NCBI GenBank assembly: GCA_021804825.1
Contig: JAJZGX010000009.1
Span: 1 to 44,357 of the forward strand
DNA length: 44,357 bases
Direction: 5' to 3'
Origin: Pseudomonadota bacterium
GTDB lineage: Bacteria; Pseudomonadota; Alphaproteobacteria; Rhizobiales; Beijerinckiaceae
The notes beneath the pieces are model-generated. The model was not told the DNA's origin. It did no database searches and saw only the letters and a program-made list of their open reading frames with translations. A program made the position numbers and the translations under genes. Shown here in pieces: positions 24,232 to 42,900 of the stretch (positions are counted from its first letter, which is position 1; every line of letters starts with the position of its first letter).

Positions 24232-24245
24232 TTGACGCGGATCAA
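24232..24245. promoter_or_regulatory. FixK/FNR box upstream of hemN
   Basis: TTGA-CGCGGA-TCAA matches the TTGA-N6-TCAA consensus at both half-sites. The centre is 41.5 bases upstream of the first base of hemN, the usual class II activator position if transcription starts at the ATG. The minus-strand sequence TAAATT occupies the -10 position (24204-24209). Confidence 0.85.
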
Positions 24246-24380
24246 ATGCCGCGGCGACGGCCCAAGTGTCAAACTGTCGCAAGGCTTGGCGGCCGTTGCC
24301 GAAACCGCCGGAGTTTCAGACATCTGCGGTTCAACTGCGACATAGATGCGGCAATTTCGCGGCAGCGATTGCGGCCGGAC

Positions 24381-24394
24381 TTGATCTCGATCAA
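24381..24394. promoter_or_regulatory. FixK/FNR box upstream of ccoN
   Basis: TTGAT-CTCG-ATCAA is a match to the full FixK consensus, including the inner T and A. Class II spacing predicts a start near 24429, and TAAAAC lies at the expected -10 position (24417-24422), about 36 bases before the ccoN ATG. Confidence 0.9.
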
Positions 24395-24464
24395 AGACGC
24401 CACTTTACCTGCATTCTAAAACTCGAGGCGATGTTTCCGCTGGGGTTCGGAGAAGGTGAGCAAA

Positions 24465-26123
24465 ATGCAGCAGAGAGTCTCGAAGAAAATCACAACCGGC
24501 GAGCTCATCGGCTTTGTGCTGCTGGCGGCCTTTGCGGTTTTTGCAACCTTTGTGTCAGCCAAAGCATGGACGCCGGCCTATGCGTTTCAGACCAGCATCA
24601 TGGCCTGGACCGCCGCCGTGTGCGCGTTCCTGGTAATCAGGAATTATTATAACCGTCCGGCGGAACTGCCGCCGCGCGAAATCGACGGCAAGCCGAATTA
24701 TTACCTTGGGCCTGTGCGGTTCCTGACGGTGGCTTCCATTGTCTGGGGGCTGATCGGCATGTCGATCGGCCTTTATATTGCCCTTGAGCTGGCCTACCCG
24801 CATCTGAATTTCGTCCATTACATCAATTTTGGACGGCTGCGGCCTTCCCATACCAATTCGGTGATCTTCGGATTTGGCGGCAATATCCTGATCGGAACGT
24901 CGTTTTATGTCGTGCAACGCACGTCACGGGCGCGGCTTGCCGGTTATCTGTCGCCGTGGTTCATCGCCGTCGGCTATAATCTGTTCCTCGTCCTGGCCAT
25001 CTCCGGCTATCCGCTCGGTATCACCGCCTCCAAGGAATATGCCGAGCCGGAATGGTATCAGAAGCTGCTGCTGACCGTCGTCTGGGTCACTTATCTGTTC
25101 GTGTTCGTCGGCACGCTGCTGCGCCGCGCCGAACCGCATATCTATGTGGCGAACTGGTTCTATCTCTCCTTCATTCTGACCATTGCGGTGCTTCACCTGT
25201 TCAACAGCCCGACGGTGCCGATCTCGCCGTTCTCGTCGAAATCCTACATCGTGTGGAGTGGTGTGCAGGATGCCATGTTTGAGTGGTGGTACGGCCATAA
25301 CGCCGTGGCATTCTTCCTGACGGTGCCATTCCTGGCGATGATGTATTATTTCGTGCCGAAACGCGCCAACCGGCCGATCTATTCCTATCGGCTGTCCATT
25401 GTGCATTTCTGGGCGCTGATCTTCATCTATATCTGGGCCGGCCCGCATCACCTGATCTACACCGCCTTGCCGGACTGGGTTCAGACTTTGGGCATGGTGT
25501 TTTCGATCGTGCTGTGGATGCCGTCATGGGGTGGCATGATCAACGGTCTGATGACGCTGTCAGGGGCCTGGGACAAGCTGCGCACGGATCCGGTGCTGCG
25601 CATGATGGTTGTGGCGCTCGCCTTCTACGGCATGGCGACATTCGAGGGGCCGGTCATGGCCATCAAGGAAGTCAATGCCCTCACCCATTATACTGACTGG
25701 GTCATTGGCCATGTGCATTCGGGCAGTCTCGGCTGGGTCGCCTATATTTCCTTCGGCGCGATCTACTGCATGGTGCCCTGGCTGTGGAATCGGCGCGAGC
25801 TCTACTCGCTCAAGCTGGTCAACTGGCACTTCTGGATATCGACCATGGGTATCGTGGTTTACATCTCCTCGATGTGGGTTGCCGGCATCATGGAAGGCCT
25901 GATGTGGCGCTCCTACAACAAGCTGGGCTTTCTGCAATATTCCTTTGTGGACACGGTTCAGGCGGTGCATCCCCTCTATGTCCTGCGCGCTCTTGGCGGT
26001 GCCATGTTCCTCACCGGTGTTCTGATCATGGTTTACAACCTGTGGATGACGATCACGGTGGATGAACTCAGCTTAAACCAAGCCGGTAGCCCGGGTGCTC
26101 CCGCACTCGTCCCCGCTGAGTGA
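24465..26123 (+). CDS. ccoN: Cytochrome c oxidase cbb3-type subunit I
   Basis: A 552-residue heme-copper oxidase subunit with about twelve membrane helices. The metal-binding histidines are visible: His129 in RPSHTNS and His418 for low-spin heme b, His278 in WWYGHNA plus His328 and His329 in GPHHLIY for CuB, and His416 in GHVHSG for heme b3. This is the catalytic, proton-pumping subunit of the high-affinity oxidase that reduces O2 to water at micro-oxic levels. I chose ATG 24465, eight bases after GGAGAAGG; a GTG at 24456 would overlap that site. It opens a cluster of eight genes and has a consensus FixK box 71 bases upstream. Confidence 0.97.
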
Positions 26124-26135
26124 GGAATTCAAAAA

Positions 26136-26870
26136 ATGTCCTTGATGTCCAAACACTATATTCTGGAAAAGAATGTCATCTTCCTCGCTGTCGCTGCGGT
26201 TCTGGCTGTGGCCATCGGCGGGCTGGTCGAGATCGTGCCCCTGTTTTATGTCAAGGGCACCATTGAAAAGGTCGGCTCGATCCGGCCTTACACGCCGCTC
26301 GAACTGGAGGGCCGCGACATTTACGTGCGTGAAGGCTGCTATCTCTGCCATTCGCAGATGATCCGGCCGTTGCGCGACGAGGTGGAGCGTTATGGCCATT
26401 ATTCGCTGGCCGCCGAGAGCATGTATGATCATCCGTTCCAGTGGGGTTCCAAGCGCATTGGCCCCGATCTGGCGCGCATTGGCGGCAAGTATTCCGATGA
26501 CTGGCACCGCCAGCATCTGAAGGATCCGCGCTCGGTGGTGCCGGAATCGATCATGCCGCGGTTCGGCTTCCTGTTCCGCACCACTCTCGACACCAGCGAC
26601 ATTGTCGCCAAGATGAAGGTGCAGCGTCTGCTGGGGACACCTTATACGCAGGCCGATATTGATTCTGCCAAGAAGGACATCGTCACACAGGACACCGATA
26701 ACAGCGATGGTGCCGCAGATCTCGCCAAGCGCTATCCCGGTGCGACTTCGCGCGATTACGCAGGTATTCCTCGCCATGTGACCGAGGCTGATGCGCTCAT
26801 TGCCTATCTTCAGATGCTCGGCACTGAAGTGAATTTCAAAACCTATGATGACAAAGCCAACATTCGATGA
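26136..26870 (+). CDS. ccoO: Cytochrome c oxidase cbb3-type subunit II (monoheme)
   Basis: A 244-residue membrane-anchored cytochrome c. One N-terminal helix (about 14-36) is followed by a periplasmic domain with the heme motif Cys68-Tyr-Leu-Cys71-His72 ([17 protein letters not shown]), typical of Cco[11 protein letters not shown] probably includes the axial methionine. It passes electrons from CcoP to the catalytic subunit. It begins 12 bases after ccoN with GAGGAA before the ATG. Confidence 0.97.
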
Positions 26871-26879
26871 GAGCGTGCC

Positions 26880-27041
26880 ATGACCCCAAATGCAACCCTT
26901 GAGCATATAGGCAGCATCGCCCGGACTGTCGGCATGCTCTACGCCGTCGCGGTCTTCACAGTTGCCGTCGTGTTTGCCATGTGGCCTTCGCGCAAAGCTG
27001 AATATGAGGCGATTGGACGTTCGCCGCTGGATGAGGAGTGA
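26880..27041 (+). CDS. ccoQ: Cytochrome c oxidase cbb3-type subunit IV (CcoQ/FixQ)
   Basis: A 53-residue protein with one membrane helix (about 18-35, MLYAVAVFTVAVVFAMW) followed by the PSRKAEYE segment that marks CcoQ: a positively charged end and an acidic tail (SPLDEE). It stabilises the assembled oxidase and aids the attachment of CcoP. It lies between ccoO and ccoP, nine bases after the first and six before the second, as in the usual ccoNOQP order. Confidence 0.92.
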   Translation: MTPNATLEHIGSIARTVGMLYAVAVFTVAVVFAMWPSRKAEYEAIGRSPLDEE

Positions 27042-27047
27042 GGGCCC

Positions 27048-27938
27048 ATGTCAATGAACAACACGCCTCATGCCGACCATGAGGTCGACAGCTTTACGGG
27101 CGTTTCAACCACCGGCCACACTTGGGACGGCATCAAGGAGTTGAACAACCCGCTGCCGCGCTGGTGGTTGTGGACGTTCTATATCTGCATCGTCTGGGCC
27201 ATTGGCTATTGCTTTGCTTACCCGTCGATTCCACTCATCAATGGCGCGACCACCGGATTTCTGGGCTGGCATTCACGCTCGGCTGTGGTGCAGAGCCTGA
27301 CGGATCTGCAGAAAACCCGCGGGGCCTTGATGGAGACCCTAGCCAGCACGCCGCTTGACCAGATCGAACAGAAGCCGGAGCTTCTGGCCTTTGCACGCGC
27401 CGCAGGTGCCGCGGCCTTCGCCAATAATTGTGCGCCGTGCCATGGCGCAGGCGGCCAGGGTTCGCCAGGCTATCCCAATCTGAATGCCAACCGCTGGCTG
27501 TGGGGCGGCACGCTCGATGATATCTATCAGACCATCCTGCATGGCGCACGCTCGGGCGATCCCAAGGGCCATCAGGGTTCCATGCCGGATTTCGGCAAGG
27601 CGGGCATTCTGACACAGCCGCAAATCGAGCAGGTCGCCAATTACGTGCGCTCGCTATCCGGCCTCAAAACCGAAGCTGGCGCTGACCTTGGTGCCGGTGC
27701 CAAGATTTTCGCCGACAATTGTTCTCCCTGCCATGGCAAGGATGCCAAGGGCAACATCAAGATCGGTTCGGCCAATCTCACCACCAAGATCTGGCTTTAC
27801 GGCTCGGCTCTCAAGACCATCGAGGCCGGCGTCACCAATGGTCATGGCGGCGTGATGCCCTATTGGGGCGGTCGTCTCGACAATACGACGATCAAGGCTT
27901 TGGCGGTGTTCGTCCATACGCTGGGTGGCGGGCAATAA
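27048..27938 (+). CDS. ccoP: Cytochrome c oxidase cbb3-type subunit III (diheme)
   Basis: A 296-residue diheme cytochrome c. An N-terminal helix (about 39-63, preceded by the conserved TGHTWDGIKELNNPLPRWW) anchors it, and two class I cytochrome domains follow with heme motifs Cys128-Ala-Pro-Cys131-His132 and Cys224-Ser-Pro-Cys227-His228. Methionine ligands are likely in GSMPDFG (Met178) and GVMPYWGG. It receives electrons from soluble cytochromes or other periplasmic carriers. In this window the HiPIPs at 38085-38702 are possible additional donors, but this is inference. The start ATG 27048 follows GAGGAG and is six bases after ccoQ. Confidence 0.96.
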   Translation: MSMNNTPHADHEVDSFTGVSTTGHTWDGIKELNNPLPRWWLWTFYICIVWAIGYCFAYPSIPLINGATTGFLGWHSRSAVVQSLTDLQKTRGALMETLASTPLDQIEQKPELLAFARAAGAAAFANNCAPCHGAGGQGSPGYPNLNANRWLWGGTLDDIYQTILHGARSGDPKGHQGSMPDFGKAGILTQPQIEQVANYVRSLSGLKTEAGADLGAGAKIFADNCSPCHGKDAKGNIKIGSANLTTKIWLYGSALKTIEAGVTNGHGGVMPYWGGRLDNTTIKALAVFVHTLGGGQ

Positions 27939-32752: not shown

Positions 32753-33466
32753 ATGCAACGCAAATTCCTTGCGACGGTGATATTTTCGGCATTCGCGCTC
32801 GGAAGCGCCTATGGGGCGGATTTACCGACACGAGATCATGCTCCTGTCTTGAAGGGCCCGAGTGCTGTCGCCCCGGTTTTCTCGTGGGCGGGATTTTATG
32901 CCGGAGCAGATGCCGGCTATGTCAACAGTTTCGCGCATACAGTGTTCCTGAATGCGGGCAATCCCGTCTATTCCACCGACGCCAACGGTGCGACGCTTGG
33001 ATTGCTGGCTGGGTATAATTTCCAGCATGGCAACCTGGTTTTCGGGCTTGAAGGCGACGGCGCTCTGATGTCGGGGGCCGGCTCCAAATTTCCTGCCAAT
33101 CCAGTCGGGACCATAACTCTGCACGCGCGCGAAGATGCTTCGGGGCATATCCGCGCACGATTTGGCTATGCTTTCGGTCCTGCGCTGCTTTATGCCGCAG
33201 GCGGTTTGAGCCTGGCCGATGAGAAATTGAGTTTGACGGGCGTTGGCGTGCCGACTTTGACGATCACGAAAACGATGTTGGGCTATAGTGTCGGGGCAGG
33301 TGCCGAATATGCGTTTGCACCGCACTGGATCGGACGGCTCGAATATATTCACGATGAGTTCGGGTCGAGATTCTTCGATTATGGTGCGTTGAATGTGGCC
33401 TATACGAACCGCACTGCGCAACTCCGCGACGATTTGGTGCGCGCCGCACTGATTTGCAAGTTTTGA
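32753..33466 (+). CDS. Omp25/Omp31-like outer-membrane beta-barrel protein
   Basis: A 237-residue protein with a signal peptide (FLATVIFSAFALGSAYGA, cut before DLP), then the motif FSWAGFYAGADAGYV that opens the eight-stranded barrels of the alphaproteobacterial OMP_b-brl family, and a final phenylalanine (LICKF) typical of outer-membrane proteins. LLAGYNFQHGNLVFGLEGD and VGAGAEYAFAPHWIGRLEYIHD are further family-type strands. Such proteins are mostly structural. ATG 32753 follows AGGA by six bases. It sits between the oxidase cluster and fixL without clear functional connection. Confidence 0.88.
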   Translation: MQRKFLATVIFSAFALGSAYGADLPTRDHAPVLKGPSAVAPVFSWAGFYAGADAGYVNSFAHTVFLNAGNPVYSTDANGATLGLLAGYNFQHGNLVFGLEGDGALMSGAGSKFPANPVGTITLHAREDASGHIRARFGYAFGPALLYAAGGLSLADEKLSLTGVGVPTLTITKTMLGYSVGAGAEYAFAPHWIGRLEYIHDEFGSRFFDYGALNVAYTNRTAQLRDDLVRAALICKF

Positions 33467-33596
33467 ACAGATTTGAAGTCGCGGCGCTTTATGGCGCCAC
33501 ATGATGCTTTGAGCGCCAGGGCAAGGGGTGCTCGCGCGCCTGCGGGCGGTGTGGTCAAGGCCGATATTGGCGGCGTCATCTGATGTTCTGGCATTG

Positions 33597-33610
33597 GTCA
33601 CAAAAGTGAC
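33597..33610. promoter_or_regulatory. Palindrome upstream of fixL
   Basis: GTCAC-AAAA-GTGAC is a perfect inverted repeat with five-base arms, 55 bases before the fixL ATG. Position fits an operator of the fixLJ promoter, but it does not match the FixK consensus and could be chance. Confidence 0.3.
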
Positions 33611-33664
33611 AGATGGGTTTTGCCGCGTTATGACCGTGCTGTGGTCTTCGCGAGATATTAGTGC

Positions 33665-35170
33665 ATGTCCGGGCAAAACTCCTCATCTGATCGTCTGTCG
33701 GCCTGCCTTGACCTTGCCTCTGAGGCTTTTGTCGGCGTGAATGCCGATCAGCAGATCAGTGCCTGCAATCACGCCGCAGAACGATTGTTCGGTGTCACCG
33801 CCAAACTCGCCCTTGGCCAGCCGCTTGGCTGGTTGCAGCCGCATAATCCTGATGCAATGCCCTCGCTCGTCAAGCTGGTGACGCAACCCGACATGGCAGG
33901 GTCACCCATGCACAAATGCCGCGCGGAAGACGGCCGGACGCAGGATTTGTCCGTTCGATGTGCAACCCTTGCGGACGGCGGTGCCATGCTGTGCTTCGCA
34001 CCGGGCCCGGTAGCGTCGCAAAATCAGGGAATCGAGGAACGCGAAGCTCACATCAATTCCGTGCTGGCGACGGTGCCTGACGCCATGATCGAAATCGACA
34101 CGGCCGGGGTCATTCAAGCGTTCAGCACGGCGGCAGAACGGCTTTTTGGATTCAGGCGCGAAGACATAGTGGGGCAGAACATTTCCAAGCTGATGCCGGA
34201 GCCATATCGCACGCATCATGACCGGTATCTTGAGCATTATCTCGCGACCGGCGAGCGGCGGATCATCGGTATCGGCCGCGTGGTCGTCGGCCAGCGGGCT
34301 GATCTTTCGACATTTCCGATGGAACTGACGGTCGGCGAGGTGCACACCGGCTCAAAGCATTTTTTCATCGGCTTCGTGCGCGACATCACTGAACGGCAGG
34401 AAGTGCGCAAGCGGTTGCAGGAATTGCAATCCGAACTCATCCATATGTCGCGCATCACCACGCTCGGAGAAATGGCTTCAACCCTTGCTCATGAAATCAA
34501 CCAGCCACTCTCAGCCATCGCCAATTACCTGCAAGGGGCACAAAAGCTGATTGCCGACGGGGACAGCGAGGCCTTGCCGCGTGCGGCGGACGCACTGGGG
34601 CGGGCGACCCGGCAGACGCTGCGTCTTGGTGAAATCATCCGCAACATGCGCGGGGTGGCGGCGCGTGGCGAGGTCGGCCGCCAAAACGTCGAGGTTGCCT
34701 CGATGATCGAGGAAGCCTGCGCGCTGGCTCTCGTCGGCGCGGCCTCGCAAAGCGTGCGCGTGAGCTTTGAAATTGCCGCCGATTTGCCGCCGGTCCATGC
34801 CAACGCCATACAGATTCAGCAGGTATTGCTGAATCTGGTGCGCAATGCGATGGACGCGATGGAAGCGACGAGCCCGAAACAGATGAACGTCGCGGCGCAG
34901 CTGCTCTCGCCTGATCGGGTGATCATCAGCGTCAGCGATACCGGCCCCGGCCTCGATCCGGACGCCTCGGATCATTTGTTTCAGTCGTTTTTCACCACCA
35001 AACCCGGCGGCCTTGGCGTCGGTCTGTCGATTTCGCGAACCATTGTCGAGGCCCATGGTGGCCGGATTTTCTTCACGCCCCTGACGCCGCAAGGCGCGAA
35101 ATTCAGCTTCACGCTGCCCCTTCCGTCCAAGGTCGATGACGCTGCGGCAAGGTCAAGACATGATCCATGA
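33665..35170 (+). CDS. fixL: Oxygen-sensing heme-PAS histidine kinase FixL
   Basis: A 501-residue soluble sensor with two PAS domains (about 15-110 and 128-245) and a kinase core. The second PAS is the heme domain: His185 in THHDRYLEHY fits the proximal heme ligand, and IIGIGR places Arg205 as the residue that contacts bound O2 (Arg220 in Bradyrhizobium FixL). The kinase has the H-box LAHEINQPLS (His276), the N-box NLVRNAMDA, DTGPG and GLGVGLSISR. FixL autophosphorylates when O2 leaves the heme and passes the phosphate to FixJ. There are no membrane helices, as in Bradyrhizobium-type FixL. Its end overlaps fixJ by 11 bases. The distal-pocket position corresponding to His214 is Arg199 here. 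Confidence 0.95.
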   Translation: MSGQNSSSDRLSACLDLASEAFVGVNADQQISACNHAAERLFGVTAKLALGQPLGWLQPHNPDAMPSLVKLVTQPDMAGSPMHKCRAEDGRTQDLSVRCATLADGGAMLCFAPGPVASQNQGIEEREAHINSVLATVPDAMIEIDTAGVIQAFSTAAERLFGFRREDIVGQNISKLMPEPYRTHHDRYLEHYLATGERRIIGIGRVVVGQRADLSTFPMELTVGEVHTGSKHFFIGFVRDITERQEVRKRLQELQSELIHMSRITTLGEMASTLAHEINQPLSAIANYLQGAQKLIADGDSEALPRAADALGRATRQTLRLGEIIRNMRGVAARGEVGRQNVEVASMIEEACALALVGAASQSVRVSFEIAADLPPVHANAIQIQQVLLNLVRNAMDAMEATSPKQMNVAAQLLSPDRVIISVSDTGPGLDPDASDHLFQSFFTTKPGGLGVGLSISRTIVEAHGGRIFFTPLTPQGAKFSFTLPLPSKVDDAAARSRHDP

Positions 35171-35759
35171 TCCCGTCATTCATCTGGTGGATGATGATGC
35201 CGATGTGCGCCATGCGCTGGCCTTCGCCCTGACGACGTCAGGCTGGGCCGTCCGGGTCTATGCCAGCGCCGAGGCGTTTCTGGCGTCATGGCCCGGCACC
35301 CAGGCCGGCTGTCTGGTCGCGGATTTGCGGATGCCTGGCATGGATGGGCTGGAATTGATCCAGCACCTGCGCGCGCTCGATCCTGATTTCCCGGCTATCA
35401 TGATGACGGGGCATGGCGACATAAGGCTGGCCGTGGCCGCCATGAAAGCCGGGGCCAGCGATTTCATCGAGAAACCGTTTGATGACGCCACGCTGCGCAC
35501 AGCCATCGGCGAGGCCATCGGCAAGGCAGGCAACAAAAGCGAACAGCCCGTTGCCGATCGGCCGGATGCCGGACGGCGCGAGCGGCTTACCCAGCGGGAA
35601 AATGAAGTGCTTGACGGGCTGCTCGATGGCCACTCCAACAAGACCATTGCCTTGGCGCTTGGCATCAGCCCGCGCACGGTGGAAACCCATCGCGCCAGCA
35701 TCATGATGAAAATGGCGGTCAAGAGCCTGCCGGAACTGGTGCGCGCCTGCATAGTTTGA
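35160..35759 (+). CDS. fixJ: Response regulator FixJ
   Basis: A 199-residue regulator: receiver domain (about 4-120) with the acidic cluster Asp11-Asp13, phosphoacceptor Asp55 in CLVADLRMPGMDG, Thr83 in MMTGHGD and Lys105 in IEKPFD, then a LuxR-type helix-turn-helix (LTQRENEVLDGLLDG, NKTIALALGISPRTVETHR). Phosphorylated FixJ activates fixK and, in some species, fixT. ATG 35160 is chosen, within the 3' end of fixL; a GTG-type extension to 35136 is less likely. Operon structure with fixL is evident from the overlap. Confidence 0.95.
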   Translation: MIHDPVIHLVDDDADVRHALAFALTTSGWAVRVYASAEAFLASWPGTQAGCLVADLRMPGMDGLELIQHLRALDPDFPAIMMTGHGDIRLAVAAMKAGASDFIEKPFDDATLRTAIGEAIGKAGNKSEQPVADRPDAGRRERLTQRENEVLDGLLDGHSNKTIALALGISPRTVETHRASIMMKMAVKSLPELVRACIV

Positions 35760-35868
35760 GGCGCGGAGGCAAGAATGCGTGCGCGGCATGACTTAAGTCA
35801 TTCGCTGCCAACGACGCACCGCTTAAATTGCCAGCTCCACACAAATCGGGACAATTGCGGAAAAACCA

Positions 35869-36264
35869 ATGGCTGTTCGATCCAGCGGATCACTGGTGCA
35901 ATTGGCTTGCGGGCAAGATGAGCTTGCCTCCTCGCTGCGGTTCGTGCTGGAAAGCGACGGCTACAAGGTCGCTGCCTTTTCCACGGTGGAAGCTGCCTGT
36001 GCCGCGCCGCGCGATACGACCGCTCTCTGTCTGGTGGCGCATTTGCCAGTGGTCTGCACCATGGATCGCCTCTGCCCCTGTTCTGCCATGAAGCAGGAAC
36101 TGGCCGTGCCGTTGATTGCCATCCTCGACGATCCGTCACCGCCGCAATTGACCTGCTGCCTGCTGCGGCATGCCTGCGCCCGGCTCACCATGCCACTGCT
36201 CGGGGGCAGTTTGCTGGCGGCGGTGCAAGCCTGCCAAGATGAGCCGCGAATCTCACATCCGTAA
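35869..36264 (+). CDS. Cysteine-rich degenerate receiver protein, FixT-like candidate
   Basis: A 131-residue protein that can be aligned by eye with the FixJ receiver: QLACGQDELASSLRFVL matches HLVDDDADVRHALAF, and CLVAHLP matches CLVADLR, so the phosphoacceptor Asp is replaced by His58 and the acidic cluster is lost (CGQ). The Thr and Lys positions are also replaced (Leu and Met). It has ten cysteines (14, 44, 54, 63, 69, 71, 96, 97, 103, 122), far above the local average. FixT of Sinorhizobium and Caulobacter is a receiver-like inhibitor of FixL; the Caulobacter protein has been reported to bind an Fe-S cluster. Location between fixJ and fixK supports a FixT-type role, but direct homology is not shown. 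ATG 35869 follows GGAAA. Confidence 0.7.
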   Translation: MAVRSSGSLVQLACGQDELASSLRFVLESDGYKVAAFSTVEAACAAPRDTTALCLVAHLPVVCTMDRLCPCSAMKQELAVPLIAILDDPSPPQLTCCLLRHACARLTMPLLGGSLLAAVQACQDEPRISHP

Positions 36265-36285
36265 TATCCCTGAGGAACCCTACGA
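36258..36285. promoter_or_regulatory. Possible FixJ-binding region upstream of fixK
   Basis: The sequence TCCGTAATATCCCTGAGGAA (from 36258) resembles the GTAATTTCCCTTA-type FixJ sites of rhizobia, and lies about 70-95 bases before the fixK start. The match is partial and made from memory, so confidence is low. Confidence 0.3.
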
Positions 36286-36351
36286 ATAGGCAGCGTCGGC
36301 TGCGCAATTTATGTTGCCCTCGTTGCGGCCATTGTGGGGAATGATGCGGAT

Positions 36352-36981
36352 ATGTCTTATCTTTCAATCCAGGGAAATGTCGACCCGCGGGCGCGCTCAT
36401 CCTATCCCTTTTTGCGGGCTCCGGTTCGCCATGCCAATACGACGTTGCGGTTCGAGCGCGAGCAAGTGATTTGCCTGCCTCCCGATGCAGCGCAGGTGTT
36501 CAAAATCATTTCGGGCTGGGTGCGGCTGGTGCAGGACCTTGCCGACGGGCGGCGCCAGATCGTCTCGTTTCACGGCAAGGGCGATTTCGTCTGGTGCATG
36601 CGCAACGCATCGGTCTCGATTTGCGCCGAAGCCATTGAAGAAACTCTGCTGATTTGCGCCGATGGCATCAGCAAGGAAGAAATGCATCAGGCGGCATTGC
36701 AGCAAATGGTTGAAGCACAGAAGCATGTGTTGCTGCTGAGCCAACGTAGTTCCGATGAAAGGGTGGCAAGCTTTCTTCTGGATATGCAGCGCCGGATGGG
36801 CTCTTCACGGATATTTTCCCTGCCCATGAGCCGGGCGGATTTTGCTGCATTCGTTGGCATGAAGATCGAGACCATCTCGCGCTGTCTGTCCAGCCTGCAA
36901 CAACGTGGCCTCATCCGTCTGCACGGGCTGCGCGGGGTCGAAATACCAGCACGCGCCGCGCTCGAACGGCTTTTGCAGTGA
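36352..36981 (+). CDS. fixK: Crp/Fnr family transcriptional activator FixK
   Basis: A 209-residue regulator with a cyclic-nucleotide-binding-like beta-roll (about 28-120), dimer helix and C-terminal winged helix-turn-helix. The recognition helix reads KIETISRCLSSLQQ: Glu173, Ser176 and Arg177 form the E-XX-SR pattern of proteins that bind TTGA-N6-TCAA. The N-terminal cysteine cluster of FNR is absent, so it should not sense O2 itself, as is typical of FixK. Cys178 directly follows the Arg. ATG 36352 is preferred; a GTG at 36334 is possible. Boxes of the right kind precede hemN, ccoN and the first HiPIP gene in this window. Confidence 0.92.
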   Translation: MSYLSIQGNVDPRARSSYPFLRAPVRHANTTLRFEREQVICLPPDAAQVFKIISGWVRLVQDLADGRRQIVSFHGKGDFVWCMRNASVSICAEAIEETLLICADGISKEEMHQAALQQMVEAQKHVLLLSQRSSDERVASFLLDMQRRMGSSRIFSLPMSRADFAAFVGMKIETISRCLSSLQQRGLIRLHGLRGVEIPARAALERLLQ

Positions 36982-37002
36982 ACATCAACTGCGCAGCGAA
37001 AG

Positions 37003-37018
37003 GTCGTTGCGCAACGAC
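37003..37018. repeat. Perfect 16-base palindrome after fixK
   Basis: GTCGTTGC followed directly by its reverse complement GCAACGAC, 21 bases after the fixK stop. It lies between convergent genes and may act in transcript ending or as a protein-binding site. Confidence 0.5.
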
Positions 37019-37020
37019 GC

Positions 37021-37040
37021 ATGAGGCAAGCTTGCGTCAT
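37021..37040. repeat. Second palindrome after fixK (20 bases, one mismatch pair)
   Basis: ATGAGGCAAG/CTTGCGTCAT is an inverted repeat with one mismatched pair, starting two bases after the first palindrome. Together they occupy most of the first 40 bases of the convergent fixK/DUF167 interval. Confidence 0.45.
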
Positions 37041-37115
37041 CACAATTGACCCGGCCCAACGGTGTGGCCGTATTTCGATTTTCTGGCCAAAACCAAGCCC
37101 GGTGGGCGCGAAGCT

Positions 37116-37481
37116 TCAGGGTGGCGGCGGTTCAAGCTCGACAAGTTGCAGCGCGAGGCTGTCCGGATCACCGGCAACGACCAAGGTCTTGATGCGAGCG
37201 GTCGCGCCCGCAACAAGTCTGACGGAGGAAGCGGGGCGTCGGAAAAATGCCGCAAGCAGGCGTTGCAGGGCCACATTGGCCTGGCCATCCTCCGGCACAG
37301 CCCGCACCCGCGCCTTGAGCACCTGGCGGCCATCAGCCAACAAGGCCACGCCTTCGACCTTGTCACTGGCACTGCGCGGAGTGAGGCGCACATGCAGCTC
37401 CAGCCCGGTGGCCGTGCGTCGCCAGGCGGCTTCGCCCGGCGGGCTCGCTATGGCAGGCATCGGCGCTTGCGGCTTTTTCAT
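37116..37481 (-). CDS. DUF167 (YggU) family protein
   Basis: A 121-residue protein with the YggU pattern: LELHVRLTPRSASDKVEG near residue 28, LKARVRAVPEDGQANVALQRLLA near 55, and LVAGATARIKTLVV near 90. The fold is a small alpha/beta domain found across bacteria and archaea, often next to genes for cell division or proline synthesis, and its function is not established. Here it is convergent with fixK and has no clear partner. It ends in ELEPPPP. Confidence 0.9.
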   Translation of the reverse strand: MKKPQAPMPAIASPPGEAAWRRTATGLELHVRLTPRSASDKVEGVALLADGRQVLKARVRAVPEDGQANVALQRLLAAFFRRPASSVRLVAGATARIKTLVVAGDPDSLALQLVELEPPPP

Positions 37482-38084
37482 CTACAATCCTGCGGATAAG
37501 GGGTTCAGCCAAACGATGTATTTGGCTCGCTCTGACAACGGGCCGTAAAGCAAAGCAAGGGGATCCGTGTGTCAGTGGCACCTTGAACAAGCTTCGTTGC
37601 TTGCTATCACACGGCCTTGGGTTGTGTCAGCTCGCGCCACGGTTGGGCATACGAATAGAATGGCAAAACCCTCCCATGTTTCACGGTCTTTGGCGGCGAC
37701 ATTTTGCTGCACCTGACCGCCAATGGCGCTTGCGCACGGCGCGCTTCCGGGGCAAACTGAAGCTACAGTGCTTCGTCAATCATGCGTGTTGTCTTGTTTG
37801 AGTCATCCTTTCTATCTATAGAATCGCCAGAGACGTGCGACCAAACCGCGCTTTTCTTAAAATAAGTGGTGAAAATTCAGTGAAACTATAGTAGAATGCA
37901 AGAACGGAAGCCGCGAATTGAAGCGAAGGCGGAGGCAACGGCGCGGCGCCGGGCCTGTAAAGTCCAGAATCGTTGCGAATCGCCGGGCGTATGGCGGCGG
38001 TTTGACTTCGATCAATGACAGTCCAGGCATATTTTTGCGAGTATGTGCCCCGTGTCCAGCGCTTCCGCATGACAGGAGATAACC
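37482..38084. other. Long intergenic region upstream of the HiPIP genes
   Basis: About 600 bases without a convincing gene. Short open frames (for example 37583-37801) lack domains and ribosome sites. An AT-rich stretch from 37801 to 37900 includes the inverted repeat TTCTA-TCTA-TAGAA. The last 90 bases hold the FixK box and promoter of the HiPIP gene. A small RNA cannot be excluded. Confidence 0.5.
38002..38015. promoter_or_regulatory. FixK/FNR box upstream of the HiPIP genes
   Basis: TTGAC-TTCG-ATCAA matches TTGA-N6-TCAA at both half-sites, 70 bases before the ATG of the first HiPIP gene. Class II spacing predicts a start near 38050; a -10-like GTATGT (38041-38046) lies close to the expected place but not exactly on it. 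Confidence 0.8.
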
Positions 38085-38345
38085 ATGACCAGAATTTTGG
38101 ATATCAATAATATGAGTCGCCGCAAGCTGTTGCTGACCGCCGCTGTGGCTGTGCCGGTCACTGCCTTGGCGTCGCTGACGGCAGAAGCCAAGGTCGCCCC
38201 GGGTTCGGTGATGTATCAGACCAAGCCGAAGGACGGGCATGACTGCAAAGCCTGCAAGCTCTTTGAGGCCCCCGGTTCCTGCAAGCAGGTTTCCGGAACG
38301 ATCAGCCCGAATGGCTGGTGCATGCTGTGGTCGCCGAAAGCCTGA
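38085..38345 (+). CDS. High-potential iron-sulfur protein 1, Tat-exported
   Basis: An 86-residue protein with a twin-arginine signal (SRRKLLLTAAVAVPVTALA, cut near residue 35) and a mature part of about 50 residues. Cysteines 54, 57, 66 and 79 have the spacing C-X2-C-X8-C-X12-C, with a Tyr (Tyr44) before them and the ending NGWC. This is the small HiPIP layout, as in PioC of Rhodopseudomonas palustris and Iro of Acidithiobacillus, which carry electrons from Fe(II) oxidation in the periplasm. The [4Fe-4S] cluster is inserted in the cytoplasm, in line with Tat export. A FixK box precedes it. A paralogue follows 84 bases downstream. Confidence 0.9.
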   Translation: MTRILDINNMSRRKLLLTAAVAVPVTALASLTAEAKVAPGSVMYQTKPKDGHDCKACKLFEAPGSCKQVSGTISPNGWCMLWSPKA

Positions 38346-38355
38346 GCCAGTTCAA

Positions 38356-38391
38356 GCGTTGCAGGGCGGGCAAAAGGCTGCCTTGCAACGC
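38356..38391 (+). other. Stable hairpin between the two HiPIP genes
   Basis: The arms 38356-38371 and 38376-38391 pair over 16 positions with two G-U pairs and a single mismatch, around an AAAA loop. No U-run follows, so it is more likely an mRNA-stabilising or processing element than a terminator. It starts ten bases after the first HiPIP stop. Confidence 0.6.
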
Positions 38392-38429
38392 CATTTGGCA
38401 CAAGGAAGACTGAATGCATGGAGGCATTC

Positions 38430-38702
38430 ATGGTCAAGATTCTTGATAACAACTCCATCAGCCGTCGCAACCTCTTGCTGACGGCTGCCGTCGCTGCCCC
38501 CAGCGCGGCGCTGATGGGCATGGCGGCCAAGGCGGCACAGGTGACGCAAGCTTCGGTCAATTACCAGAATTCATCGAAGGACGGGCATTCCTGTTCCAAC
38601 TGCAAGCTGTTCGTTGCACCGTCTTCCTGCAAGATCGTTGCGGGCAAGGTGAGCCCAGGCGGCTGGTGTGAGCTATGGAACGACAGACCGGGAACTAATT
38701 GA
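38430..38702 (+). CDS. High-potential iron-sulfur protein 2, Tat-exported
   Basis: A 90-residue paralogue of the preceding gene: the signal (SRRNLLLTAAVAAPSAALMG) and the mature motif match closely, with Tyr45 and Cys55, 58, 67 and 80 in the same C-X2-C-X8-C-X12-C spacing, and GGWC near the end. The tail is longer (ELWNDRPGTN). ATG 38430 with GGAGG five bases upstream gives an N terminus like that of HiPIP 1; ATG 38418 is also possible. Two copies suggest a gene duplication, perhaps with different redox potentials or partners. It lies 59 bases before the porin-cytochrome gene and is probably co-transcribed with it. Confidence 0.9.
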   Translation: MVKILDNNSISRRNLLLTAAVAAPSAALMGMAAKAAQVTQASVNYQNSSKDGHSCSNCKLFVAPSSCKIVAGKVSPGGWCELWNDRPGTN

Positions 38703-38761
38703 CGAGTATGCAGGCAGGGCTGATTCGCGCTGCGGTACATGCATATTTTTGGAGGGGTATA

Positions 38762-40141
38762 ATGACAAAATTCATAGACAATATCTGGCGTGCGGTCGCG
38801 CGGCGGAAGGTGTTGATCGGCACATTCTCGCTCGCCGCTTCAGCACTGGTCGCTTCGTCCATGCCAGCTTCGGCGCTGCCGAGTTTTGCTCGTCAGACTG
38901 GGCAGCCTTGCGCGGCTTGTCATACAGCGTTTCCTGAGCTGACGCCTTTCGGTCGCCGCTTCAAGCTGAATGGCTACACCCTGTTTGGTGCAGACAAGAC
39001 CAGTTCGATGCCGCATGTGGCCATGATGCTGATGCCGACCTTCACCCATACGGGTGTCGCGCAGGATGCACCTCCGGCGCCGCATACAAAAACCAATGAC
39101 AACCTGATTTTGCAGCAGGCCAGCCTGTTCTACGGCGGCCAGATATTCGGCAAGCTCGGTGCCTTCATTCAGGCGACCTATGATCGCGCCACGGGTCGCA
39201 CACTGCTCGACAATACCGATGTTCGCTATGCTGACAATACCAAGCTGTTCGGGCAGGATTTGCTGTACGGCTTTGACTTCAACAATTCGCCAACCGTGCA
39301 GGACGTGTGGACCACCACGCCGGCTTGGGGCTTTCCCGAAGCTGCGCCGACACTGGCACCGCAATTTGCGCCGCCGGGCACGCTGATCGAGGGTGCCTTG
39401 TCAGGCAAAGTGGCGAGCGCGGGTTTTTACACCTTCTGGAATGACATGGCCTATTTCGAGATTTCTGGTTACCAGATGCTCAGCAAGGGTCAAGAACGCG
39501 CGCTTGGTGAGCCGGATTCGGCAATTTCGGATGGGTTGAAAGGCGTTGCGCCCTATTGGCGTATCGCGTTCGAGCCGGATTGGGGTCCCAATTCCTGGGA
39601 AATCGGCACGTTCGGCATCGATGCCCATATTCATCCGATGCGGGTTTCGACCTTTGGTTCCGATCATTACACCGATATCGGCTTTGATACCCAGTATCAG
39701 TATAATGGCGACAAGAACTCGTTCACGGTGCGTGCATCGGATATTTTCGAGCATCAGCATCTGGCCTCGACCTTCAACCAGGGTGGCTCGACCAACCTGA
39801 ACAATACGCTGCGCAGCTTCAAAATGGTCGGTTCCTGGGTATATGATCATACCTACAGCCTCTCGGCGGAATATTTTGACGTGGCGGGCAGTTCTGACGC
39901 GGGCCTTTACAGCGGCAATTCGGTGGTCAATTCACCCAATGGACGTGGCATGATCTTTGATGCGGCCTATCTGCCCTTCAGCCATGGTGGCCCCAAATTC
40001 TGGCCATGGGCTAATGCCCGCATCGGTATCAGCTATACGCACTTCCTGCAGGTCTATGGCGGCACCACCAACTTTGACGGTGCCGGCCACGATGCCAAAG
40101 GTAATGACGTCACTTTCCTCTATAGCTGGATTGCTTTCTGA
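38762..40141 (+). CDS. Cyc2-like monoheme porin-cytochrome (outer membrane)
   Basis: A 459-residue protein. A signal peptide (to about residue 38, ending MPASA) leads into LPSFARQTGQPCAACHTAF with a single heme motif Cys50-Ala-Ala-Cys53-His54, then LTPFGRRFKLNGYTL. This N-terminal motif recalls that of Cyc2-type iron oxidases, in which a small cytochrome plugs an outer-membrane barrel. The following 390 residues are rich in alternating, aromatic-bounded strands (SAEYFDVAGSS, YTHFLQVYGG) and end in a phenylalanine (SWIAF), as expected for a barrel. A broader group of barrel cytochromes of unknown role shares the motif, so iron oxidation is not proven. The start ATG 38762 follows GGAGGGG. It follows two HiPIP genes and ends at a strong terminator. 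Confidence 0.78.
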   Translation: MTKFIDNIWRAVARRKVLIGTFSLAASALVASSMPASALPSFARQTGQPCAACHTAFPELTPFGRRFKLNGYTLFGADKTSSMPHVAMMLMPTFTHTGVAQDAPPAPHTKTNDNLILQQASLFYGGQIFGKLGAFIQATYDRATGRTLLDNTDVRYADNTKLFGQDLLYGFDFNNSPTVQDVWTTTPAWGFPEAAPTLAPQFAPPGTLIEGALSGKVASAGFYTFWNDMAYFEISGYQMLSKGQERALGEPDSAISDGLKGVAPYWRIAFEPDWGPNSWEIGTFGIDAHIHPMRVSTFGSDHYTDIGFDTQYQYNGDKNSFTVRASDIFEHQHLASTFNQGGSTNLNNTLRSFKMVGSWVYDHTYSLSAEYFDVAGSSDAGLYSGNSVVNSPNGRGMIFDAAYLPFSHGGPKFWPWANARIGISYTHFLQVYGGTTNFDGAGHDAKGNDVTFLYSWIAF

Positions 40142-40195
40142 GGGTCTGGTGATGCAACTGCCGGGATGACCCGGCCGCTGAAAGCCAATAAAAGC

Positions 40196-40226
40196 GTGGG
40201 CAGCCCTGATCGGCTGCCCACTTTTT
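40196..40226 (+). terminator. Rho-independent terminator after the porin-cytochrome gene
   Basis: GTGGGCAGCC and GGCTGCCCAC form a perfect ten-pair stem with a six-base loop, followed directly by TTTTT. It lies 55 bases after the stop codon and closes the HiPIP/porin-cytochrome unit. Confidence 0.93.
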
Positions 40227-40420
40227 CATGGCTTTGCCGCAGAGGTTTCGGGTTCGGACGCGACCTGTCTGGCATGATCCCGCCTTGCCCTCGTGCCGCG
40301 CCTTGGCGATGTGGCATTTACGCCACAGTCCATGGCATAGGTTGCGATGGTCCGTGGTGACCGTTGAAAATGCAACCATTTGTGTTAGAAGTCTTTGGGG
40401 TGTTCATCAGGATATACGGA

Positions 40421-41599
40421 ATGAAAATGCCGAAAGCCGGTATTCTGGCCGGTTGTGCCGCTGTCGCCCTCGGCCTTTCCGGCTGTTCCGCCCTTCCCGA
40501 ATCAGGTCCCAGCACATCGGCGGTGAATGCGGCCGCATCGGACACGGCTACCCAAAACGCAACCTATGCGATGATCGACATAAATGGCGATGTGGCGCGG
40601 CTGGCCAGCCAGCATCTGCCGCCCAGCATGTTTCGCTCGTTCAGCGACCATCGTGGTTCAGTCGACCCAAGAATAGGCGTCGGCGATCAATTGGTGGTGA
40701 CCATTTGGGAATCAGGGCCGGGCGGCTTGTTTTCGTCGCAGGTCGTGCCGGGCATGCCGAGCACCGGTGCCAGCAGTGTGACACTGCCGGCGCAGGTCGT
40801 CGGGCGGGATGGCCGAATCAGCGTGCCATATGCCGGGACGATTCCGGTGCTGGGGCGCACGCCGCTCGAAATCCAGACCGCAATCATTCGTGCGCTGCAT
40901 GGCAAGGCCATTCAGCCGCAGGCCCTTGTGACCCGTCCCGTTCAAGCCAGCAGCACGGTCACCGTCACAGGTGATGCGGTCGGCAATGCCATTCTGCCGC
41001 TTTCGCCCAAAGGCCAGCGCCTGCTGGATGTCATTGCTCAGGCTGGCGGTATCAGGGGCATTGCCGCTGATGCGATGGTGAAATTGTCGCGTGGCGGTCA
41101 TACCGAGGAAGTTCGCTTCAACCGCATCGTCAATGACCCGCACCAGAATGTCTTTGTGCGGCCCAATGACATTGTCACCGTCAATCGTGATCCACGGGTG
41201 TTCATTGCACTGGGGGCAACAGGTGCCAATGCCCAGGTGCCGTTCGACGCTGATAGTTTGTCGCTCAGTGATGCGCTCGGCAAGATTTATGGCCTGCAGG
41301 ACCAACGCTCGGATGCACGCGGCGTCTTTCTGTTCCGGCGCGTGCCCTACAACATTGCCAGAGTGCTGCTTCCTGGCAATCCGCTGGTGGTGCGCGGGCG
41401 TCTGACGCCTGTCGTGTTCCGGCTCGACATGGACAAGCCCGACAGTCTGTTCGTCGCGCAGAATTTCCCGATTTTCAATCACGATGTGCTTTATGTCTCG
41501 AATGCGCCATTCGTGGACGTGCAGAAAGTTGTCGGGGTGTTCAATTCGCTGTCGTCACCGGTGGCGACCACGGCCGGTCTCAAGACCGCGCTGAAATAG
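40421..41599 (+). CDS. Wza-like polysaccharide export lipoprotein
   Basis: A 392-residue protein with a lipoprotein signal (LGLSGC, lipid-modified Cys expected near residue 22), then a Poly_export domain (about 80-180, IGVGDQLVVTIWE and GRISVPYAGTIPV) and two SLBB-like segments (VTVTGDA and FIALGATG). Wza-type proteins form the outer-membrane channel for exopolysaccharide or capsule. ATG 40421 follows AGGA. It is convergent with the glycosyltransferase gene (eight-base gap), so the two are not in one operon, but both may serve the same polymer. Confidence 0.9.
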   Translation: MKMPKAGILAGCAAVALGLSGCSALPESGPSTSAVNAAASDTATQNATYAMIDINGDVARLASQHLPPSMFRSFSDHRGSVDPRIGVGDQLVVTIWESGPGGLFSSQVVPGMPSTGASSVTLPAQVVGRDGRISVPYAGTIPVLGRTPLEIQTAIIRALHGKAIQPQALVTRPVQASSTVTVTGDAVGNAILPLSPKGQRLLDVIAQAGGIRGIAADAMVKLSRGGHTEEVRFNRIVNDPHQNVFVRPNDIVTVNRDPRVFIALGATGANAQVPFDADSLSLSDALGKIYGLQDQRSDARGVFLFRRVPYNIARVLLPGNPLVVRGRLTPVVFRLDMDKPDSLFVAQNFPIFNHDVLYVSNAPFVDVQKVVGVFNSLSSPVATTAGLKTALK

Positions 41600-41607
41600 T
41601 GCCGGGA

Positions 41608-42900
41608 TCAGGGTCTGGCGACAAATGCCATGACCTGGCGCATGTGGTCGCTCCAGCGCGCGGGCGTGACTTGGGCCGATTTGCCGCGAAGTTCCTGTGC
41701 GAGCGGGTCTTGCGCAGCAGTGAGGCGTTCGATGGCGGCGATCCAGCCGGGCCCATCGAGGGGATGCAGCAAGAGCGCCGCCGATGCCGCGACTTCGCGA
41801 TGAACGGCAATATCGGACGCCACGACCGCCGCGCCGCAGGCCTGTGCTTCCAAAACCGGCAGCGAATAGCCTTCGACCAGTGAGGGCGCCAGCACGCCGC
41901 GCGCCCCCGCCATGAGCGCAGCGAGGCCTGAATCCGACAGGCCGGATATTTCCATGACATGCGAAGCAAGGCGCGGCGAACGCTCGAGCATGGCTATGAT
42001 ATTCTGATTTTCCCAGCCGCGATGGCCAACCAGCAGCAGCCGCGGCGCCGCCATGCCGTGGCGTTCAATAAGCCTGCGCCATATTTCCAGCAGGAAGGCC
42101 AGATTCTTGCGCGGTTCCAGAGTGCCGACGCATAGAAAATACGGCGGCACGTGCCGGGGGGCATCTTGGCTGGCGGCGGCGGCAAAAGCAGCCTCGATAC
42201 CGAGCGGTGCGACCAGAATGGGGGGGGACTCCAGCTTCAGGGCGGCCCAATGATGTTCGACGCGCGCCCGCGTGAAATTGGAATTGACTATGAGCCGCGC
42301 CCCAAGCGCCGCGGCACCCTTCAGGCGCGCCTCGTGCTGGCGGGCTGCTCCGGGCCGACAAAATTCGGGATGATCCATCGGGATGACATCATGCAGCAAC
42401 AGCGTGACCTCTATGCGGTGTCGGCTGGCCCAGGCGAAGCGTTGCGGATGGTCGATCTGCAAGTGAGACACGTTCAGATAGCGGCGGTCATCGGCTGGCG
42501 TGGCCAGTTCGCGGCGCAGAACCTGCGGGGACAGCACGATATCGGCCAGAGCAGAACCGGCCGAACGCGCGCCCATGCCGTGAGCCTTGGCGCCCTGCGC
42601 CCGGTGCACGCGCGTGCGCGAGGGATCGGGGTCGCGCCAGAGCCAGATCTCGACGTCTTTGAGCACGGCGTCCTCGGTGGCCGGTGCGCCAAGGTTCCAA
42701 TTGGCATGAATGCGCTTGAACAGGTTTTGCGCGCGGTTTGGCGGCAACATGCCGGAAACGCGGGGCAGCGTTGCTATAAATGCGGTAGCATTATCGTGCG
42801 ACAAATGCTGCGCATAGGCCCATTCGACACGGTCGATCCCCGTTGGGGCCGAACGCCAAGACCTTGCGTAAATCCTTGTTATATCGATATAATATTTCAT
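41608..42900 (-). CDS. Glycosyltransferase family 4 protein
   Basis: A GT-B glycosyltransferase of about 430 residues. The N terminus (KYYIDITRIYARSW, then TGIDRV) resembles that of the left-edge enzyme, CVGTLEPRKNLAF is the donor-binding motif near residue 255 and EGYSLPVLE is the EX7E motif near 345. ATG 42900 is preferred; a TTG at 42915 is possible. It likely adds a sugar in polysaccharide assembly; the sugar is unknown. It is divergent from the KpsS-like gene with about 155 bases of AT-rich shared upstream region. Confidence 0.88.
   Translation of the reverse strand: MKYYIDITRIYARSWRSAPTGIDRVEWAYAQHLSHDNATAFIATLPRVSGMLPPNRAQNLFKRIHANWNLGAPATEDAVLKDVEIWLWRDPDPSRTRVHRAQGAKAHGMGARSAGSALADIVLSPQVLRRELATPADDRRYLNVSHLQIDHPQRFAWASRHRIEVTLLLHDVIPMDHPEFCRPGAARQHEARLKGAAALGARLIVNSNFTRARVEHHWAALKLESPPILVAPLGIEAAFAAAASQDAPRHVPPYFLCVGTLEPRKNLAFLLEIWRRLIERHGMAAPRLLLVGHRGWENQNIIAMLERSPRLASHVMEISGLSDSGLAALMAGARGVLAPSLVEGYSLPVLEAQACGAAVVASDIAVHREVAASAALLLHPLDGPGWIAAIERLTAAQDPLAQELRGKSAQVTPARWSDHMRQVMAFVARP

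What the first reader, a model, noticed from the sequence alone, without database searches (positions are those of the whole stretch)
38002..40226. Oxygen-regulated HiPIP-HiPIP-porin-cytochrome module, candidate Fe(II) oxidation or electron-uptake system
Two tandem Tat-exported HiPIPs with the same C-X2-C-X8-C-X12-C spacing as I recall for PioC are followed by an outer-membrane protein with one CXXCH in a Cyc2-like FARQTGXXCXXCH context and a probable barrel. A FixK box precedes the unit and a strong terminator closes it. In known systems a HiPIP accepts electrons from an outer-membrane conduit (PioC from PioAB), or is a proposed carrier in iron oxidation (Iro). A Cyc2-like conduit with paired HiPIPs beside cbb3 oxidase and FixLJK is a combination I do not know as a described system. 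It would link an extracellular donor to the low-oxygen oxidase.
Basis: partly seen in the sequence, partly recalled or inferred. Interest (0 to 1): 0.88.

Follow-up and report, generated by a model that had tools for sequence, protein, structure and literature searches.

The report
Oxygen-controlled Cyc2 conduit with HiPIP carriers
A bacterium carries three neighbouring genes that look like a low-oxygen wire moving electrons, probably from dissolved iron, through its outer membrane, with small iron-sulfur proteins in the place where relatives keep a cytochrome.

Summary
In detail: two Tat-type HiPIPs (38085-38345, 38430-38702) precede a 459-aa protein (38762-40141) with one CXXCH, behind a FixK box and before a strong terminator. 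The third protein meets the published sequence criteria for Cyc2 and is predicted as a 16-strand porin (pLDDT 89; Z 22 to OmpC). Its cluster could not be fixed against a biochemically tested Cyc2.

(1) HiPIP-Cyc2 linkage recurs: a HiPIP lies within 6 kb of Cyc2 in 29 of 70 assessable loci, 22 of them within 0.8 kb, in both orientations. (2) So does the FixK/FNR box: 15 of 33 close-homologue promoters against 3 of 435 other promoters, and 8 of 24 against 10 of 246 in a second set. (3) Of loci without HiPIP, 30 of 39 have a CXXCH protein nearby; three diheme ones tested best match A. ferrooxidans Cyc41/Cyc1. HiPIP seems to fill the Cyc1 slot, though tree-corrected counts are too few to prove it.

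FixLJK and CcoI beside the unit were seen in only one of 80 other loci. FixK control of the HiPIP-bearing pioABC operon is a precedent. Donor, electron direction and activity are untested.

The parts
38002..38015 (.). FixK/FNR-type box TTGACTTCGATCAA, centred 76 bases before hipA
   Evidence: 3 sites in window, 0.51 expected; kept in sister species L012; enriched in homologous promoters
38085..38345 (+). hipA: Tat-type HiPIP, 86 aa, CX2CX8CX12C
   Evidence: Pfam HIPIP 19.7 bits, below cut-off 22; Iro model 60.1 bits, below cut-off 100
38356..38391 (+). intercistronic hairpin, 14-pair main stem, no T run
   Evidence: z -5.2 for the 90-base spacer; stem kept and loop changed in L012
38430..38702 (+). 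hipB: Tat-type HiPIP, 90 aa, CX2CX8CX12C
   Evidence: 28.4 bits; Iro model 65.6 bits, below cut-off 100; PioC E 2e-6; model, residues 41-80 at pLDDT about 90
38762..40141 (+). cyc2-type gene: 459-aa predicted outer-membrane porin with one N-terminal c-type heme motif
   Evidence: motif; 16 strands; porin fold; trees; no Pfam, NCBIfam or PDB sequence match
40196..40221 (+). intrinsic terminator closing the unit
36334..36981 (+). FixK-like Crp/Fnr regulator, probable reader of the box
   Evidence: best match NF050806 119 bits, below its cut-off of 300
35136..35759 (+). FixJ-like response regulator
   Evidence: NF006900 244.9 bits, cut-off 255
33665..35170 (+). FixL-like PAS sensor kinase
   Evidence: NF041777 481.5 bits, cut-off 850
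24456..27938 (+). ccoN, ccoO, ccoP of the cbb3 oxidase, candidate electron sink
   Evidence: TIGR00780, TIGR00781, TIGR00782, all above cut-off
24232..24394 (.). two further TTGAN6TCAA boxes (24232, 24381) in the hemN-ccoN gap

Best explanation
This is a low-oxygen-induced outer-membrane electron conduit. A Cyc2-type porin-cytochrome takes electrons from an extracellular donor, most likely Fe(II), on its single heme and passes them to Tat-exported HiPIPs in the periplasm. The HiPIPs do the job that the diheme c4 cytochrome Cyc1 does in A. ferrooxidans, and hand the electrons on to the cbb3 oxidase (direct or through a c-type cytochrome). FixLJ-FixK switches the unit on together with cbb3 when oxygen falls. 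Shown here: gene content, motifs, predicted barrel, box and its conservation, HiPIP linkage. Inferred: heme insertion, electron direction, donor, HiPIP as direct acceptor, FixK as the regulator.
For: Cyc2 signature and length and a predicted 16-strand porin. HiPIP within 6 kb of cyc2 in 29 of 70 assessable loci, 22 within 0.8 kb, 8 co-directional and 14 divergent. In 100 related genomes 6 of 7 with cyc2 also have HiPIP and every HiPIP hit in those six lies beside cyc2, against 9 of 93 without cyc2 (Fisher 2.7e-5). Box in 15 of 33 close-homologue promoters vs 3 of 435 others; second set 8 of 24 vs 10 of 246. CXXCH proteins near cyc2 in 30 of 39 HiPIP-less loci vs 8 of 26 HiPIP loci (Fisher 3e-4); 8 of these scanned are Cytochrom_C and the three diheme ones tested match PDB 1h1o best, which is Cyc41 of A. 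ferrooxidans (PMC10879576; Cyc1 per PMC8406198). Form I RuBisCO large subunit, aa3 and cbb3 oxidases, no reaction centre in the genome. pioABC is a FixK-controlled precedent.
Against: No member of this clade is shown here to oxidise iron; several nearest named hosts (Methylocapsa, Methylocella) are, as I recall, methanotrophs not known for it. TTGAN6TCAA is also read by FNR and, as I recall, NO-responsive relatives, so FixK is not proven. The box is absent from the Methylocapsa and Methylocella loci L018, L019, L020 and from L023, L025, L082 although HiPIP is adjacent. Outside the close clade the HiPIP link is rare: 1 of 12 distinct loci in L121-L134 and 0 of 10 in L169-L178. With tree correction the HiPIP/cytochrome exclusion has only 6-7 independent pairs: right direction in about 3-4, wrong in about 0, sign test p 0.125-0.25. 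Lineages with both exist (Bradyrhizobium, Rhodoblastus acidophilus). HiPIP potentials in print (about +450 to +633 mV) are high for feeding cbb3 near neutral pH.
Confidence: 0.58

Rival explanations
1. The same conduit runs outward: at low oxygen the cell disposes of respiratory electrons through HiPIP and Cyc2 onto Fe(III) or another extracellular acceptor.
For: Low-oxygen control fits an electron sink. In A. ferrooxidans the rus-operon proteins and Cyc1B/Cyc2B rise during anaerobic growth with Fe(III) (PMC7735108, passages), and PMC10715153 treats Cyc2B as an Fe(III)-reduction protein (passages).
Against: HiPIPs are high-potential carriers (+450 to +633 mV), so outward flow is favourable only with acidic Fe(III); PioC and Iro are proposed for inward flow.
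Confidence: 0.2
2. General extracellular electron uptake (electrodes, humics, mineral-bound iron) or oxidation of a donor other than dissolved Fe(II), with iron only one of several donors.
For: Cyc2 function outside tested members is explicitly unsettled (PMC8406198 section 13); many hosts here are not known iron oxidisers.
Against: The three Cyc2 proteins tested so far oxidise Fe(II), per the same section; the Cyc1-like proteins in HiPIP-less relatives point to the iron pathway.
Confidence: 0.13
3. A protective or assembly role: the HiPIPs and the heme porin remove Fe(II) or reactive species at the outer membrane and feed no energy metabolism.
For: Small, facultative module, present in 7 of 100 related genomes; no Pfam or NCBIfam family names the barrel.
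Against: Shares the FixK-type box with cbb3; relatives pair cyc2 with electron-transfer c4 cytochromes; the genome has RuBisCO.
Confidence: 0.09

Closest known systems
Cyc2 fused cytochrome-porin (A. ferrooxidans Cyc2, Mariprofundus Cyc2-PV1, Leptospirillum Cyt572)
   Same: Single N-terminal CXXCH in the AXPXFAR[QK][TY] ... PXL context, over 365 aa, predicted 16-strand porin
   Different: Periplasmic neighbour is HiPIP, not Cyc1/c4 or rusticyanin; placement against a tested Cyc2 not done
pioABC of Rhodopseudomonas palustris TIE-1
   Same: Outer-membrane conduit plus PioC-type HiPIP in one unit under a FixK box (PMC3050613, PMC6831781, passages)
   Different: Decaheme PioA and porin PioB are replaced by one monoheme porin; no photosynthetic reaction centre in this genome
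cyc2-cyc1 pairs of Acidithiobacillus and other acidophiles
   Same: HiPIP-less relatives of this clade have cyc2 beside diheme c-type proteins related to PDB 1h1o
   Different: The window has no CXXCH protein next to cyc2; HiPIPs occupy that position
Iro of Acidithiobacillus
   Same: HiPIP with matching cysteines; best NCBIfam hit
   Different: 60-66 bits against a cut-off of 100; in print Iro lies downstream of the pet operon (PMC10654088), not beside cyc2

Membership tests
Cyc2 | AXPXFAR[QK][TY] upstream of CXXCH, PXL downstream (PMC8406198) | tested here: met
   ALPSFARQT, CAACH, PEL. Motif read from passages.
Cyc2 | at least 365 aa and one CXXCH | tested here: met
   459 aa, one CXXCH
Cyc2 | outer-membrane beta-barrel of 16 strands | tested here: met
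   Predicted: (16 strands); porin matches, best Z 22.0, rmsd 3.7 over 305 residues
Cyc2 | export signal | tested here: inconclusive
   N-terminal helix then SALP seen by eye and; no signal-peptide program was available
Cyc2 | placement in Cluster 1, 2 or 3 with a tested member | tested here: inconclusive
   in a 64-row clade (98) apart from two divergent types that I take for zetaproteobacterial; no named tested Cyc2 was in the set
Cyc2 | Fe(II) oxidation with suitable potential | not testable with these tools
   needs protein
HiPIP (PF01355) | profile match above cut-off and four spaced cysteines | tested here: met
   HipB 28.4 bits over 22; HipA 19.7, below; both CX2CX8CX12C
Iro (NF041615) | score above equivalog cut-off 100 | tested here: not met
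   60.1 and 65.6 bits
Pio system | decaheme PioA with porin PioB in the unit | tested here: not met
   The unit holds one CXXCH in all; PioA was not sought elsewhere in the genome
FixK regulon | TTGAN6TCAA in the promoter | tested here: met
   38002-38015
FixK regulon | adjacent FixL, FixJ, FixK above NCBIfam cut-offs | tested here: not met
   Best matches, all below cut-off: 481.5/850, 244.9/255, 119.4/300
FixK regulon | FixK binds and activates the promoter | not testable with these tools
   needs binding and expression assays

The most novel reading that the evidence does not exclude
HiPIP is the dedicated periplasmic partner of a FixK-controlled Cyc2 in a clade that includes Methylocapsa, Methylocella, Methylocystis, Rhodoblastus and unnamed relatives, replacing the c4 cytochrome Cyc1. 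If so, many methylotrophic and phototrophic Alphaproteobacteria not known as iron oxidisers carry a hidden micro-oxic iron-oxidation or electron-uptake route, and the disputed role of Iro-type HiPIPs is answered by gene linkage.
Probability: 0.4. Interest if true: 0.8.

Novelty: new variant of a known kind. Interest (0 to 1): 0.66.

Why it matters
The role of HiPIP in iron oxidation is described in print as unresolved or unknown (PMC10715153 and PMC4725956, passages). A HiPIP that is repeatedly linked to cyc2, in both orientations, and found mostly where the usual cytochromes are missing, gives a direct hypothesis that can be tested with purified proteins and in cultured relatives. The recurring FixK/FNR box says when to look: at low oxygen. 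It would also widen the set of organisms to test for iron oxidation to acid-bog methanotrophs and their kin.

Tried and rejected
Rejected or weakened: (1) That FixLJK/cbb3 proximity is itself the conserved feature: seen in 1 of 80 other loci. (2) That paired HiPIPs define the system: only the window and L012. (3) That HipA or HipB is an Iro equivalog: below cut-off. (4) That the box result is a coding-versus-intergenic artefact: the first test used mostly coding background, so I repeated it with other genes' promoters from crude gene calls; the enrichment stayed. (5) Solved structures by sequence or profile: no Cyc2 relative, only actin-like matches at E about 0.5.

Led nowhere: rusticyanin (TIGR03095) in 16 chosen genomes gave only weak hits in one (G755), none over cut-off, so no rus operon could be used as a named Cyc2 anchor. 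AMO/PmoA (PF02461) was not found in G000-G002, but the control rang in none of 14 genomes, so this is inconclusive. Rfam found nothing at gathering scores in 33000-42000. The plasmid search gave Cyc2-type genes in 9 records. Weak cyc2 hit G077 (E 3.9e-4; no CXXCH flagged in its frame) was dropped from the 8 of 100 to give 7. The genome-contig scan kept the best 80 of 165 relatives, so frequencies are for that set; its search patterns contain the motif itself, which makes motif conservation in that set partly built in. Of 81 tree rows 11 had a contig edge within 900 bases of cyc2 and were set aside; 'no HiPIP' means none in the DNA held. Two duplicates and one edge case were dropped; the divergent (zeta-like) group there had the box in 0 of 7. 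Among more distant loci of the first set the box is in 4 of 43 promoters vs 13 of 637. L037 counts as 'with CXXCH' through a 98-aa frame that is probably spurious. Foldseek TM-scores to porins are modest (0.36-0.47 by query length).
Full report
What is there. The unit runs from a FixK-type box (38002-38015) through hipA (38085-38345), hipB (38430-38702) and a Cyc2-type gene (38762-40141) to a terminator (40196-40221). Both HiPIPs have SRR leaders and CX2CX8CX12C; 27 of 29 HiPIP genes found in related loci share that spacing. HipB is over the Pfam cut-off, HipA just under. PioC is the best solved relative of HipB. The Iro model is the best NCBIfam match to both but far below its cut-off.

The barrel protein. 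It has no match in Pfam, NCBIfam or, by sequence, the PDB. It carries ALPSFARQT-GQP-CAACH-TAF-PEL, that is, the AXPXFAR[QK][TY] and PXL pattern that Keffer et al. call unique to Cyc2 (PMC8406198, passages). With 78 homologues as alignment AlphaFold2 gives mean pLDDT 89.1, pTM 0.83 and 16 strands, the number stated for Cyc2-PV1 in the same paper. Foldseek finds porins (best E 7e-8) and VIA-align gives Z 22.0 to OmpC over 305 residues.

Where it sits. In 100 related genomes 8 matched; one weak match without the motif was dropped, leaving 7. A scan of one genome per species gave 165 relatives, of which the best 80 were kept. The nearest are MAGs of Hyphomicrobiales (REEB77, REEB78), then Methylocapsa, Methylocella, Methylocystis and Rhodoblastus. 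In the tree the window lies in a 23-row clade (SH-aLRT 99): HiPIP nearby in 17, none in 3, unknown in 3. In a wider tree with proteins from class and phylum samples (12 of 385 and 87 of 398 genomes with a match; 65 of the 87 in one family by my count) it stays in a 64-row clade apart from two divergent types, which I take for zetaproteobacterial Cyc2 from their motif and genome size; that label comes from no call.

HiPIP linkage. With a HiPIP profile, 29 of 81 rows (window included) have a HiPIP within 6 kb of cyc2, 41 have none in the DNA held and 11 are at contig edges. In 22 the distance is under 0.8 kb: 8 co-directional, 14 divergent. A change of orientation with linkage kept argues against mere inheritance of one gene order. 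In the 100 relatives HiPIP occurs in 15; 6 of the 7 cyc2 genomes have it, and all 8 HiPIP hits in those six lie beside cyc2; 9 of the 93 others have it (Fisher 2.7e-5, not tree-corrected).

A partner swap. Using crude gene calls, a CXXCH protein under 450 aa lies within 2.5 kb of cyc2 in 30 of 39 assessable HiPIP-less loci and in 8 of 26 HiPIP loci (Fisher 3e-4). Eight of these proteins, chosen from HiPIP-less loci, are all Cytochrom_C by Pfam. Three of the diheme ones were compared with the PDB, and 1h1o was the best match each time, E 5e-30 to 2e-26. 1h1o is Cyc41 of A. ferrooxidans (PMC10879576), equated with Cyc1 in PMC8406198. So close relatives of the window gene have the cyc2-cyc1 arrangement, and the window clade has HiPIP in that place. 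With tree correction there are 6-7 independent contrasts; the cytochrome goes the opposite way in about 3-4 and the same way in about 0, which cannot reach significance. Some lineages have both.

Low-oxygen control. The window's three TTGAN6TCAA sites are all in intergenic promoter positions; the whole genome has 52 against 6 for the reversed pattern. Across loci the box is in 15 of 33 close-homologue promoters against 3 of 435 other promoters (Fisher 1e-16), and in 4 of 43 against 13 of 637 in more distant ones. Promoter boxes fit TTGAYN4RTCAA in 18 of 21 cases against 17 of 32 elsewhere (p 0.014). These counts are not tree-corrected. The box does not tell FixK from FNR. Several HiPIP-linked loci (L018, L019, L020, L023, L025, L082) lack an exact box.

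Physiological setting. The genome and two congeners encode RuBisCO (3 of 3; the large subunit of G000 scores 791 bits against 438), with a following ORF that looks like the small subunit but has no NCBIfam match at 1e-10. They have one aa3-type and one cbb3-type oxidase gene each (types for G000), PQQ alcohol dehydrogenases and no photosynthetic reaction centre (0 of 3). A chemolithoautotrophic or methylotrophic life with CO2 fixation is possible.

How it most likely works. Fe(II) or another outside donor reduces the Cyc2 heme; a HiPIP takes the electron in the periplasm, as PioC is proposed to do for PioAB (PMC6831781, passages); the end acceptor at low oxygen is cbb3. FixLJ-FixK would make the conduit only when abiotic Fe(II) oxidation is slow and cbb3 is present. 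The strong hairpin between hipA and hipB (z -5.2; stem kept in L012) may set the ratio of HipA to HipB-Cyc2; this is a guess. Outward flow to Fe(III) is the main rival: in A. ferrooxidans the same class of proteins rises during anaerobic Fe(III) reduction (PMC7735108, passages).

What is known. Cyc2 homologues in Alphaproteobacteria are in print: Acetobacteraceae with neighbouring mono- or diheme cytochromes (PMC10715153, passages) and Hyphomicrobiales in a sequence network (PMC10654088, passages). FixK control of pioABC is in print (PMC3050613, passages). I found no description of a HiPIP-cyc2 gene pair or of a FixK/FNR box before cyc2 in my searches; for most listed papers I saw only the listing, and subscription journals and supplements are not in the library. 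Hence: a new variant of a known kind.

Noticed in passing
window 38356-38391: Very stable hairpin between hipA and hipB, no T run, stem conserved in L012 with a changed loop; candidate processing or stability element.
   Followed up: partly
window 35869-36264: 131-aa ORF between fixJ and fixK with no Pfam match; by eye it resembles a degenerate receiver domain.
   Followed up: no
L092 11890-14186 and Acidiphilium plasmid hits: Plasmid-borne Cyc2-type gene followed by a c-type cytochrome in Acidithiobacillus ferrooxidans YQ-N3; the Acidiphilium cryptum JF-5 hit has the same score: possible horizontal spread.
   Followed up: partly
L093 5809-9579: Methylocystis sp. MJC1 plasmid: Cyc2-type gene annotated 'hypothetical protein' followed by three c-type cytochromes.
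   Followed up: partly
L074, L077, L078, L080, L085, L090: In Roseateles, Thauera, Azoarcus, Paucibacter and a Zoogloeaceae MAG, FixL/FixJ-like two-component genes lie 0.6-3 kb before cyc2, a different regulatory link.
   Followed up: no
L062: Bradyrhizobium erythrophlei GAS478 has two cyc2 loci (L061, L062), each with a HiPIP about 1.1-1.4 kb away on the other strand.
   Followed up: no
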